This document shows, piece by piece, positions 2,528 to 16,046 of a DNA stretch of 35,729 nt. This stretch comes from Nanohaloarchaea archaeon B1-Br10_U2g21 (GTDB lineage: Archaea > Nanohalarchaeota > Nanosalinia > Nanosalinales > Nanosalinaceae). Both the position numbers and the translations under genes were made by a program. The DNA lies in assembly GCA_001563915.1 (NCBI GenBank), contig LKMP01000010.1, forward strand, positions 1-35,729, given 5' to 3'. Position 1 is the first letter of the stretch; every line of letters starts with the position of its first letter. Below the pieces are notes generated by a model that had not been told where the DNA came from, did no database searches, and saw only the letters and a list, made by a program, of their open reading frames with translations.

Positions 2528-3334
2528 ATGTTTTTGGTGTATTTCTATATGGTTCTGGAAAAACTCCGCTCTGGCGCCCTATGGCAACTGCTCGATGACG
2601 ATGGAAGCAGAAAACTTGCATTTATTCTTTGTCTGCCGTTGATAGACGGAGTTTTTGCTACGTTATTGGTGACTGGGGCTGTTAACACGTTCAGCCAAAT
2701 GATTAATGTGGCTATAACAATATTTACAGGCGCTGGAGCATTAGCAGTTCTTTACGCGGAATCAGATACTCGAAGAGATGCAGTAAAGATGATTAACAAT
2801 GTAGTCCCTGTAGTTGTAGTCGGAGCTTTGACTATAGCATTAATTGCTCCATTATTCGAACAAATCTTCAATACGAGTTTACTAAAGTATGCTGCAGGCC
2901 TTGCAATACTATCTATAGCAGCACAACTAGCCGACATAAAAACTGCAGAGCATCTACCTCCGACAGCAGTAATAATCACAGGGATGTTGCTATCATATCA
3001 AGGAGTAAATGGCTTTACAATGACGACCGCTTATGTTTACCCGGCTTTGGCTACTGTAGGAATTGCAATTATGGCACTATATTTTGCCACAGCTCTAAAG
3101 AGTTTTGAAATGAATCTTACCTATGTAAGATATGGTGGTTCGGCAGTACTCGTTATTATAGCGGCATCGCTCATAGGGATAAATCTTCCTGCTTATTTAG
3201 GGCCTTTAGTCTTTTTTGCAGCCATTTTAGCATCGTTTGAGAATCTAAAATTGCCTGACTTCAATATGGAAAGAATTTTTAGAACCTTCGGTAAGCTTGA
3301 CGACAATTCTTTCTCTCAAAGGCCTGAGTATTAG
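2528..3334 (+). CDS. Polytopic membrane protein, DUF5794-like
   Basis: Integral membrane protein of 268 residues with about seven or eight hydrophobic segments. The N-terminal part, with LPLIDGVFATLLVTGA followed by a glycine-rich helix, AVLYAES and a later CAAQLADIKTAEHLP-like region (here AAQLADIKTAEHLPP), resembles the haloarchaeal DUF5794 membrane proteins as I remember them; that family has no known function. The start at 2528 suits a leaderless transcript from the TATA-like core near 2498; an in-frame ATG at 2552 is a plausible alternative. Its last 30 codons overlap the 3' end of fxsA on the other strand in the same codon register, so the C-terminal tail is constrained by both proteins. 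Confidence 0.6.
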   Translation: MFLVYFYMVLEKLRSGALWQLLDDDGSRKLAFILCLPLIDGVFATLLVTGAVNTFSQMINVAITIFTGAGALAVLYAESDTRRDAVKMINNVVPVVVVGALTIALIAPLFEQIFNTSLLKYAAGLAILSIAAQLADIKTAEHLPPTAVIITGMLLSYQGVNGFTMTTAYVYPALATVGIAIMALYFATALKSFEMNLTYVRYGGSAVLVIIAASLIGINLPAYLGPLVFFAAILASFENLKLPDFNMERIFRTFGKLDDNSFSQRPEY

Positions 3335-8671: not shown

Positions 8672-8869
8672 CTATTTTAGGGCCTCTCGAATATCTTTGG
8701 GCTTAAGCGTTTTTCTCCCGTTTTCTTCTGTTATTGCGAGTGCTTCTTCAGCTACATCGCCTGCGAAAGTCTCAAGAATTTCTCCAAGTTCTTCCGCTGC
8801 CTCTTCAGATACTCGCTTATCTGTCTGTGTTTTCAGTAGTGACTTCATCTTTGCGTTAGAGAACTCCAT
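8672..8869 (-). CDS. Archaeal histone
   Basis: Single histone-fold protein of 65 residues, the usual length for HMf-type archaeal histones that dimerise and wrap DNA. Helix 1 is short (KMKSLLKTQ), helix 2 runs through VSEEAAEELGEILETFAGDVAEEA, and the C-terminal RKTLKPKDIREAL is the conserved loop-2/helix-3 motif. The protein is more acidic than thermophile histones, as in haloarchaea. It starts the minus-strand group histone-rpa-radA, with 88 bp to rpa. It is distinct from the shorter DUF1931-type histone-fold protein at 13975. Confidence 0.92.
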   Translation of the reverse strand: MEFSNAKMKSLLKTQTDKRVSEEAAEELGEILETFAGDVAEEALAITEENGRKTLKPKDIREALK

Positions 8870-13320: not shown

Positions 13321-13809
13321 CTAGGAGGAGATCTTCCGTAATGTGAGTCCATAGGCAAGTGTAGAGATAGACAAGAGCAGGAAAAATCCTGCTAGAAATA
13401 GAAAAGCGAGAGATGGTTCTTGACTTACGCTTTCCTCAGCCTCCATCATTAAATCTGCATTATCTTCGGGTCCTAAACTTGATGCTTCAGAAGCAAGAAG
13501 AGAGAGACCTATTATGGCGGAGACGAAAGAAGACGTTACTGAGAACTTAACTTTCCTGCTACGCCCTTGTACTACTGCCTTCGCTTTGTCTGTAGGCCTA
13601 TATACTACGCGCCTACGACCTTCTTCTGCATCTTTTTCTAAAAGGCCAGACGAAACAAGTTTTTCTAGGTGGGAAGACACGGTAGACTTACTTTTCTCTA
13701 AATCTTGCGATAGAGAGGTTGTAGTGGCCTCAGCCTCTAACGAAGATGACAATATTTTTATTCGAGTGGGCGAGGAAAGCGCCTTAATGGTTTTATAATC
13801 CAGTTCCAT
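13321..13809 (-). CDS. Membrane-anchored ArsR-like winged-helix regulator
   Basis: Fusion of a DNA-binding domain to membrane helices (162 residues). Residues 1-72 form an ArsR-type winged helix: TIKALSSPTRIKILSSS, recognition helix SKSTVSSHLEKLVSSGLLE and wing GRRRVVYRPTDKA. Two hydrophobic segments follow (about 91-108 and 134-155), separated by an acidic, Ser/Glu-rich loop of about 25 residues that would face outside. Haloarchaea encode many such one-component membrane regulators, but the signal sensed is not known. It has no metal-binding CxC motif. A perfect palindrome with a TATA core lies 45-62 bp upstream of its start, suggesting autoregulation. MBF1 lies 76 bp downstream. Confidence 0.82.
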   Translation of the reverse strand: MELDYKTIKALSSPTRIKILSSSLEAEATTTSLSQDLEKSKSTVSSHLEKLVSSGLLEKDAEEGRRRVVYRPTDKAKAVVQGRSRKVKFSVTSSFVSAIIGLSLLASEASSLGPEDNADLMMEAEESVSQEPSLAFLFLAGFFLLLSISTLAYGLTLRKISS

Positions 13810-13853
13810 GGTAGATACTTATGTTTCGATGCTTTTTTGAGCTGTGTTTATAC

Positions 13854-13871
13854 GTTCGATTTATATCGAAC
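13854..13871. promoter_or_regulatory. Palindromic operator candidate over a TATA element
   Basis: A perfect 7-bp inverted repeat, GTTCGAT-TTAT-ATCGAAC, whose centre reads as a TATA-like element on both strands. It lies between the divergent ArsR-like regulator gene (start 13809) and the DUF1931 gene (start 13975). A near half-site TTTCGAT occurs at 13824-13830, and TTTCGAT and GTTCGAT recur at 12656-12662 and 12665-12671 just after tRNA-Ser. Binding by the neighbouring winged-helix protein is inferred. Confidence 0.5.
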
Positions 13872-13930
13872 AAATTAAAAGCGCCTTGTTGATGTCTGTC
13901 CGATTGTTTTTCCGGCTTTAACACCCCTAC

Positions 13931-13967
13931 CTATAAAAAAGAGGACAGACAATAGCTTACTAGGTGA
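13931..13967 (+). promoter_or_regulatory. TATA box and ribosome-binding site of the DUF1931 gene
   Basis: CTATAAAAAA at 13931-13940 is a strong archaeal TATA box, and AGGTGA at 13962-13967 is a Shine-Dalgarno sequence 7 nt before the ATG at 13975. A TATA to TSS distance of about 25 nt gives a short leader containing the ribosome-binding site. This fixes the start of the small gene. Confidence 0.6.
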
Positions 13968-13974
13968 ATCACAC

Positions 13975-14142
13975 ATGGCAGACGTACTTAAGAAATCAGG
14001 CGTTCGTGACGAAGCAGACGGCGTAAATGTCGGAAGCGACTTCTACGAAGCTCTAGACGACAGAGTAAAAGAACTAGTAAGCAGAGCTGTTGAAAGAGCA
14101 CAAGAGAACGGACGCAAAACAGTCAAGTCAAGAGATGTATAA
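13975..14142 (+). CDS. DUF1931 histone-fold protein
   Basis: Short protein of 55 residues, MADVLKKSGVRDE then VNVGSDFYEALDDRVKEL and ENGRKTVKSRDV. The pattern N-V-x-S-D-F-Y-x-A-L-D followed by N-x-R-K-T-V-x-x-R-D matches small haloarchaeal DUF1931 proteins, which have half of a histone-type fold and are thought to bind DNA or partner proteins. Strong TATA and ribosome-binding sites precede it, and its start is unambiguous. It probably is well expressed. A run of six T (14148-14153) follows the stop. A decayed copy lies about 160 bp downstream. Function beyond nucleoid association is not established. Confidence 0.85.
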   Translation: MADVLKKSGVRDEADGVNVGSDFYEALDDRVKELVSRAVERAQENGRKTVKSRDV

Positions 14143-14151
14143 CTTAATTTT

Positions 14152-14207
14152 TTAACGAGGGGAGGTAGAGGTCTGCAAGATTTTTTGAAGGCCTCGACCC
14201 TTGTTAA
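14152..14207 (+). terminator. Long hairpin followed by a T-rich tract
   Basis: TTAACGAGGG (14152-14161) can pair with CCCTTGTTAA (14198-14207) over ten positions including one G-U. Nested inside, GAGGTC (14168-14173) pairs with GGCCTC (14190-14195), again with one G-U. TCTTTATTTT follows. This could end the DUF1931 transcript, or be a structured 3' untranslated element. It begins 10 nt after the stop codon. Confidence 0.45.
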
Positions 14208-14304
14208 TCTTTATTTTAGCTATAATAGCCTTCTGAATCTCTATAAAAATCTTTTTTAGTTATAAAAACTACTGATAGATGTTTTTAAGCAGGATGACTA
14301 AATA

Positions 14305-14460
14305 ATAGAGACTGCACTTAAGAAATCATATTCTATTGGCACAGTAGAGAGTGTGAATTCTGATTCAAAGTTCTATGAGTTATTAGGCAGTAAACCAAAA
14401 AATAGGGTTAATAGCGCAAAAAATGACGGCTACAAAAAATTAGCAAGTCAAGAAAGATAA
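14305..14460 (+). pseudogene. Start-less DUF1931 paralogue
   Basis: The frame from 14305 to the TAA at 14458-14460 encodes 51 codons clearly related to the DUF1931 protein at 13975. LKKS aligns with LKKS, VNSDSKFYELL with VNVGSDFYEAL, and the C-terminal NDGYKKLASQER with NGRKTVKSRDV. In place of ATG the aligned first codon is ATA, an in-frame TAA lies just upstream (14302-14304), and there is no usable start within the conserved part. The conserved Asp and RKT residues are lost. A TATA-like GTTATAAAAAC lies about 40 nt upstream. It appears to be a duplicated copy in decay. The rest of the stretch 14208-14515 holds nothing else I can name. Confidence 0.6.
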
Positions 14461-14515
14461 GAAGACCAAATAAATCTTTCAAAAGGCCGTTCTCACATTT
14501 TTTATCTTTCTAGAA

Positions 14516-14728
14516 TCAGAGTTCTTCTTTCCTACGTTCTTGCTCTTTTAACTCAGCTTCAACCTTTTCTAAGGCTTCACGAAAGTGTTCTACTGCGTCT
14601 AAGCTTTCAATAGGCAAACGACCTAGATCTCCATCATTAACTGTGACGAAAAACCTGCTGTTCTTTTCAACTACCTTGTAATTTAACACTTTGTAAGGCC
14701 CATCAGAAAAGCTGTAAATCGATTCCAT
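14516..14728 (-). CDS. Small hypothetical protein
   Basis: Unrecognised 70-residue acidic protein. The first half looks beta-rich (YKVLNYKVVEKNSRFFVTVNDG) and the second half is a charged helix (SLDAVEHFREALEKVEAELKEQERR). There is no signal peptide or catalytic motif. It lies downstream of the sugar-activation operon with a 25-bp gap, on the same strand, so it may be the last gene of that transcript. Confidence 0.5.
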   Translation of the reverse strand: MESIYSFSDGPYKVLNYKVVEKNSRFFVTVNDGDLGRLPIESLDAVEHFREALEKVEAELKEQERRKEEL

Positions 14729-14753
14729 GAACTTAATATCGAACTCTACTGAT

Positions 14754-16046
14754 TTAACCTTTCTGCCTGAAACCTTCTATTTTATCTCTGACATCTTCCA
14801 AGACTTCTTTCGCAGACTCAGGATCTGGTGATTCAGAAATGATCCGCACCTTCTGCGAACTACCTGAAGGCCTAACTAAGATTTCTGCGTTATTTCTACA
14901 GAACTTTATACCATCAAGATCTGATAAAATATTTTCGTCATCTATACTTTGCTTCAAAGACGCTAATAATTCCTCTTTCCGCTCCACTTTTACAGAATGT
15001 CTCATAACAGCGTAATCAGGTATTCTTTCTAATGATTTATTGATATCTAGACCAGAAATGATTAAAGCAGTTAATATTCCTGAATTATAGGGTACAAAAT
15101 CTGTGAATGAGTAATGTCCGTTAGGTTCGCCTGCTAATTCAGCATCTATATCAATAGCATGATCCATAACAAAAGGATCGCCGACACGAGTATATTCAAC
15201 TTCTAAAAACTCTTCTAATACCTTAGAAGTATCTATAGATGCTACTACAGGTCCTTTAACTAACTGTGATAATATGCAGAAAACTTCGCTGCCTTTTAGG
15301 AAGCGACCTTTGTAGTAAACTGTTATGCGATCTGAGTCCAAATCGTTAGATATTCCTAGGTCTGCAGAGTTTTTTATCACAGCCTGCTTCAGTTCATCAA
15401 GGTTCTTAGGCTGAGGAGCAGGAGGATCGTGATAAATTCCTTTACGGCCTTTTGAAAGATCTATTACCTCGGCGCCTAGGTCTCTCAATAAACCGGGTAA
15501 AATTTTGCCTGTGCCTCCCAGAGAGTCTACAACTATTTTTTTGTCCCAGTCTTCAGCATATTGTCTAGCAAAAGTTTTAGCACTATCTGTGTAATTGTCT
15601 TTCATATTCTTCTTAGAAACATGACCTACCCCTTCTTGAAATTCCCGATCTCTGAAAATGTCTTGAACAGCATATAAATCTTTGTTTATGAATCCATTGC
15701 CTTCAGGATACATAAATTTGAATCCATTGAATTCTAGCGGCATATGGGAAGATGTTACTTCGACAGAAACAGCTTCCAGTTTTTTACCGCAGAATGCAGC
15801 ATAATCTGTAGGACCTATACCTACATCTATAACATTTACTCCGCTGGACATTATGCCGCTGATTAAAGACTGTTTAAGAGTTTCAGAGCTTGGCTTATTG
15901 TCTCGGCATACAACTATATTCTTCTGGAGATTCTGAGCCACGAATGTCCCTAGAGATTTTCCTAAAAGTTTAGCAAACTTATTGTCTATTTCTTCAGGAT
16001 ATTTTCCTCGGATATCATATCTTTTGAATACTTTTTCAGGCTTCAA
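14754..16046 (-). CDS. Phosphomannomutase/phosphoglucomutase family protein
   Basis: Alpha-D-phosphohexomutase that would move phosphate between C6 and C1 of glucose, mannose or glucosamine to supply the nucleotidylyltransferases upstream. The 430 residues contain all four family loops: phosphoserine loop TSSHMP (Ser100; the family norm is TASHNP), metal loop DLDSDR (Asp235, Asp237, Asp239, Arg240), sugar-binding loop GEPNGHYSF and phosphate-binding loop RPSGSSQKVRI. Asn-to-Met beside the active serine is unusual. The start is TTG at 16046, overlapping the HAD gene by 11 bp; no other start fits the conserved N-terminus KRYDIRGKYP. Substrate (Man, Glc or GlcN) cannot be told. Confidence 0.88.
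   Translation of the reverse strand: MKPEKVFKRYDIRGKYPEEIDNKFAKLLGKSLGTFVAQNLQKNIVVCRDNKPSSETLKQSLISGIMSSGVNVIDVGIGPTDYAAFCGKKLEAVSVEVTSSHMPLEFNGFKFMYPEGNGFINKDLYAVQDIFRDREFQEGVGHVSKKNMKDNYTDSAKTFARQYAEDWDKKIVVDSLGGTGKILPGLLRDLGAEVIDLSKGRKGIYHDPPAPQPKNLDELKQAVIKNSADLGISNDLDSDRITVYYKGRFLKGSEVFCILSQLVKGPVVASIDTSKVLEEFLEVEYTRVGDPFVMDHAIDIDAELAGEPNGHYSFTDFVPYNSGILTALIISGLDINKSLERIPDYAVMRHSVKVERKEELLASLKQSIDDENILSDLDGIKFCRNNAEILVRPSGSSQKVRIISESPDPESAKEVLEDVRDKIEGFRQKG

What the first reader, a model, noticed from the sequence alone, without database searches (positions are those of the whole stretch)
14305..14460. Start-less histone-fold paralogue next to an intact copy
A 51-codon frame without stops, homologous to the DUF1931 protein 160 bp upstream, has ATA where the start should be and an in-frame TAA just before. 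It lost the RKT/RD residues. Either it is a young pseudogene, or it is expressed from a non-standard start, since the frame is intact and a TATA-like element precedes it.
Basis: seen in the sequence. Interest (0 to 1): 0.5.

Follow-up and report, generated by a model that had tools for sequence, protein, structure and literature searches.

The report
Decayed duplicate of an archaeal histone
Next to a working small histone gene of a salt-loving nanohaloarchaeon lies a broken second copy that is still intact in its two closest held relatives, so this is an ordinary dead gene duplicate rather than a protein with an unusual start.

Summary
In detail: 14305-14460 (+) is a 51-codon open frame, homologous to the intact 55-aa histone gene at 13975-14142, with ATA at the start position and an in-frame TAA two codons before it. 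Both other genomes held for the genus carry an intact ATG-started tandem copy at this place, so the loss is specific to this lineage. The window copy looks like a decayed gene: it lost all five residues that define face-to-face histones (28 of 28 intact copies aligned keep them); its differences fall evenly over the three codon positions; its identity to the sibling (54%) is at or below that of the non-coding spacers (56-66%), against 90% for the intact copy; its GC is near spacer level; and nucleotide alignments need frame-shifting indels. A frame of this length stays open by chance in about 7-14% of simulations, so openness is weak evidence for function. The TATA-like box is a leftover shared with the sibling's intact copy. 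"Young" is not supported, and "DUF1931" is a poor label: the intact gene is a face-to-face (alpha3-truncated) histone closest to HTkC (PDB 9f2c). Ordinary; low interest.

The parts
13975..14142 (+). Intact 55-aa face-to-face (alpha3-truncated) histone gene, copy A, with TATAAA at -43 and GGTGA at -12 from the ATG
14152..14207 (+). Stem-loop in the spacer after copy A, probably its 3' UTR or terminator (inference)
   Evidence: MFE -25.5 kcal/mol, z -4.56; G002 equivalent -26.1, z -4.16; G001 z -1.23
14261..14268 (+). Leftover TATA-like box of copy B; TATAAA at -44 from the ATA, the same place as in the intact sibling copy
14299..14301 (+). In-frame TAA two codons before the former start
14305..14460 (+). 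Decayed tandem copy B (pseudogene): start ATG to ATA, all five face-to-face residues lost, net 12-base shortening

Best explanation
Copy B is a non-functional relic of a tandem duplication of a face-to-face histone gene that is shared by the genus. In the two sister genomes both copies are intact. In the window's lineage the downstream copy lost its start codon and its GGTGA ribosome-binding sequence, took small indels and substitutions, and now drifts like the spacer around it. Copy A, and four other histone-fold genes in the genome, can continue to supply histones. Shown here: homology, synteny, intact copies in relatives, loss of start and motif, loss of codon-position bias. Inferred: that no protein is made, and the order of the mutations.
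For: Intact ATG copy B in 2 of 2 other genus genomes, in the same place (the region 13875-14731 aligns to G002 at 72%). R41, N45, R47, T49 and D54 are kept in 28 of 28 intact copies aligned; in copy B they read gap, D, Y, K, E. Differences by codon position: copy B against G002B 21/24/26 and against G000A 24/25/26, while each of the ten intact genus pairs has its highest count at position 3; share at position 3 is 0.40 (28 comparisons, 0.35-0.45) against 0.65 (342 intact pairs with 30 or more differences, 0.45-0.90). Branch length at positions 1+2 and at position 3: 0.76 and 0.72 on the copy B branch against 1.64 and 10.58 for the rest of the tree (HKY). Identity to G002: copy A 90%, neighbouring gene 14516-14728 74%, copy B 54%, spacers 66% and 56%. 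GC 0.327 against 0.452 in copy A and 0.309 in spacers. With 5 of 5 references and 4 of 4 scoring schemes the alignment puts a one-base deletion and a one-base insertion near codons 2-4, and further indels not multiples of three in 18 of these 20 alignments. GGTGA is present upstream of 13 of 19 intact copies, including the other five genus copies, and absent here.
Against: The frame has no stop, which neutral decay gives in only 7-14% of simulations at 50-70 changes from G002B or G000A. The TATA-like box and the LKKS stretch of helix 1 persist, and GGATGA could be a weak ribosome site. Copy B seems to have changed faster than synonymous sites of copy A would predict (dS 0.36 between the copies A of G000 and G002); this is unexplained beyond misplaced gaps, constraint on copy A codons, or gene conversion. 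The codon-position test uses the in-frame alignment, which internal frameshifts would also flatten. Only two other genus genomes are held, both incomplete (68 and 78%).
Confidence: 0.93

Rival explanations
1. A functional, diverged small protein is translated from the AUA codon.
For: Stop-free frame of 51 codons with a TATA-like box at -44; non-ATG starts do occur in the family (GTG in G011 and G017, 2 of 28 intact copies).
Against: All five defining residues lost, codon-position bias lost, identity at spacer level, GGTGA lost. GTG is an ordinary start, AUA is not (general knowledge); the one paper that holds 'AUA start codon' concerns Mycobacterium and was seen only in the listing.
Confidence: 0.03
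2. A 35-aa remnant is translated from the in-frame GTG at 14353.
For: GTG is codon 17 of the frame.
Against: It would lack helix 1 and the face-to-face residues; no GGTGA precedes it.
Confidence: 0.015
3. The relic is still transcribed from the leftover promoter and acts as a non-coding RNA that affects copy A.
For: TATA-like box retained at the same distance as in G002; the first 25 bases still largely match copy A.
Against: Same-strand similarity gives no antisense pairing; no Rfam match at E up to 1 in 13800-14800; sequence is no better kept than the spacers.
Confidence: 0.02
4. The similarity is chance or the frame is an assembly artefact.
For: The sequence comes from an incomplete 24-contig assembly.
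Against: 0 of 2000 shuffles reach the DNA score; the copy lies between the same neighbours as in G002; single read errors cannot make about 70 differences.
Confidence: 0.005

Closest known systems
Face-to-face (FtF) alpha3-truncated histones, e.g. HTkC of Thermococcus kodakarensis, PDB 9f2c
   Same: Copy A: best PDB match by sequence (E 1.7e-7) and by fold (TM 0.72-0.75, Foldseek E 4.5e-3); same residues R41, N45, R47, T49, D54 as given for Haloferax D4GZE0 in PMC11390915 (passages seen).
   Different: Copy B keeps none of these five residues and has no start codon.
DUF1931 (PF09123)
   Same: Copy A matches weakly (14.8 bits, cut-off 21.8).
   Different: Below cut-off and weaker than PF00808; copy B matches nothing in Pfam at E up to 10 or in NCBIfam at E up to 1.
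Prokaryotic pseudogenes from tandem gene duplication
   Same: Tandem copy with intact orthologues in relatives, start lost, constraint lost.
   Different: Nothing unusual except that the frame happens to lack stops.

Membership tests
Pseudogene | Intact orthologue at the same place in relatives | tested here: met
   2 of 2 other genus genomes
Pseudogene | Disabling mutation (start, frame or stop) | tested here: met
   ATG to ATA; frame-shifting indels in nucleotide alignments
Pseudogene | No purifying selection on the reading frame | tested here: met
   Even codon positions, identity at spacer level; no strain series available for a within-species dN/dS
Pseudogene | No protein made | not testable with these tools
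   Needs proteomics or ribosome profiling
Face-to-face histone (copy A) | R41, N45, R47, T49, D54 and a 3-4 residue alpha3 helix | tested here: met
   model with helices 2-7, 10-13, 21-44 and a three-residue helix 52-54, mean pLDDT 82
Face-to-face histone (copy A) | Torus-shaped tetramer of two dimers | not tested
   Only a monomer was modelled
Face-to-face histone (copy B) | R41, N45, R47, T49, D54 | tested here: not met
   gap, D, Y, K, E
DUF1931 PF09123 (copy A) | Score over Pfam's cut-off | tested here: not met
   14.8 against 21.8 bits

The most novel reading that the evidence does not exclude
The frame is a repurposed micro-protein started at AUA that has shed the DNA-binding and tetramer residues and modulates copy A as a dominant partner.
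Probability: 0.02. Interest if true: 0.6.

Novelty: new member of a known kind. Interest (0 to 1): 0.1.

Why it matters
It shows that the number of face-to-face histone genes changes even within one nanohaloarchaeal genus, by tandem duplication, probable gene conversion (in the sibling G002) and loss. It also warns that a short stop-free frame with a TATA-like box is weak evidence of a gene with an unusual start. Beyond that it is ordinary.

Tried and rejected
Non-standard start: rejected for lack of constraint. Internal GTG start: rejected. RNA family: no match at E up to 1 in 13800-14800. Sigma-70 and terminator scan: nothing useful, 3 promoter-like sites, all on the minus strand, against 1.5 expected, and 0 terminator-like sites. 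The gene tree with a gamma model gave copy B a branch at the upper limit (10) and an unresolved placement (support 50), so its placement was not used; branch ratios were also taken with HKY. One search used some loci in the wrong orientation and was replaced; ended with script errors after printing (from 28 nothing is used; the tree of 29 was rerun in 30, the upstream comparison of 31 in 33). Left out of the 29-copy alignment: the second G006 copy, G027, the weak second hits of G010 and G017, and the matches outside the order. A search for decayed second copies in the 16 other family genomes would miss relics like this one, because protein searches did not list copy B itself. Papers: PMC11390915 and PMC13260811, passages only; the others only as search listings. 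I make no claim that the relic is absent from print.

Full report
What is there. The window is contig C11 of an 815,638-base assembly in 24 contigs, 92% complete. Its closest named matches are nanohaloarchaea, e.g. Nanohaloarchaea archaeon PL-Br10_U2g27 with 91% protein identity over the whole histone. At 13975-14142 there is an intact 55-aa histone-fold gene, preceded on the other strand by an ArsR-type regulator and an aMBF1 homologue. At 14305-14460 follows the frame of the finding, then, on the minus strand, a 70-aa protein without a family and a phosphoglucosamine-mutase-like enzyme.

Is the similarity real? Yes. BLASTP gives E 3e-05 to the neighbour and E 2e-07 to the sibling's intact copy; none of 2000 dinucleotide shuffles reaches the DNA score. 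The region 13875-14731 aligns as one piece to genome G002 at 72%. Against this, a protein search of the own genome with copy A did not list copy B even at E 10.

Relatives. Of 60 genomes searched, own included, 33 have a match to copy A at E 0.001. In the family, 19 of 19 have one. Intact tandem copies within 500 bases are found in G001 and G002, the only other genomes held for the genus, and in none of the other 16 family genomes; G006 has two equally scoring copies 3.35 kb apart. Both tandem copies in G001 and G002 begin with ATG and are full length; G001 copy B ends in A rather than V. The pair G001B-G002B has dN/dS 0.19; probable gene conversion in G002 makes this number approximate.

Decay of copy B. 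In a codon alignment of 29 copies, the 28 intact ones keep R41, N45, R47, T49 and D54, and copy B has gap, D, Y, K and E. Copy B's differences from G002B are 21, 24 and 26 at codon positions 1, 2 and 3; G000A against G002A has 3, 2 and 12. The mean share of differences at position 3 is 0.40 for copy B in 28 comparisons and 0.65 for 342 intact pairs with at least 30 differences; the ranges just touch (0.35-0.45 and 0.45-0.90). The copy B branch has 0.76 changes per site at positions 1+2 and 0.72 at position 3, against 1.64 and 10.58 for all the rest of the tree. Pairwise identity to G002 is 90% in copy A, 74% in the 70-aa gene, 54% in copy B, and 66% and 56% in the spacers. GC is 0.452 in copy A, 0.327 in copy B and 0.309 in both spacers. 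Free nucleotide alignment prefers a one-base deletion and a one-base insertion around codons 2-4 with all five references and all four scoring schemes, and in 18 of these 20 alignments more indels downstream that are not multiples of three, so the nominal frame is probably not the ancestral frame throughout. Exact indel positions depend on the scoring.

Why an open frame and a TATA box mean little. Random change of the three intact copies taken as starting points leaves no stop in 12-15% of runs at 50 changes and 7-8% at 70 (4000 runs each). The TATAAA at -44 is in the same place in the intact copy B of G002, and all 20 upstream regions compared have one at -40 to -47. GGTGA, present before 13 of 19 intact copies including the five other genus copies, is absent before copy B.

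What copy A is. Pfam scores are below cut-off (PF00808 19.4 of 21.4 bits; DUF1931 14.8 of 21.8) and NCBIfam gives archaeal histone at 26.3 of 50 bits. The best solved relative is HTkC, 9f2c (E 1.7e-7), also first by fold. The residues named for face-to-face histones in PMC11390915 (passages seen) are present at the same numbers. The model has a three-residue third helix at 52-54, as that paper describes for the group. The tetramer was not modelled. That paper proposes that such histones wrap DNA as tetramers; that copy A does so is inference.

Verdict. Copy B is a lineage-specific decayed duplicate. Points that remain open: it has changed more than the synonymous distance between the A copies would suggest (dS 0.36), which may reflect misplaced gaps, codon constraint in copy A or gene conversion; and absence of translation is not shown.

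Noticed in passing
window 14152-14207 (+): Long stem-loop between the two histone copies, MFE z -4.6; the G002 counterpart folds alike (z -4.2), G001 weakly (z -1.2). Only one full copy in the own genome, no Rfam match. Probably the 3' end of the copy A transcript.
   Followed up: partly
L048 (G002), the two histone copies at 2654-2818 and 2988-3152: The 19 differences between the tandem copies all lie within bases 60-114 of 165, with both ends identical at synonymous sites too, and none of 100,000 random placements was as tight: a sign of gene conversion.
   Followed up: partly
window 8678-8866 (-): A second, ordinary histone-fold gene (PF00808, 49.9 bits); three more over cut-off lie on other contigs of the genome.
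   Followed up: no
L015 and L020 (G011, G017): The histone gene appears to start with GTG instead of ATG.
   Followed up: no
L050 (G006): Histone and neighbouring 70-aa gene occur twice 2.8-3.4 kb apart with equal scores; recent duplication or assembly duplicate.
   Followed up: no
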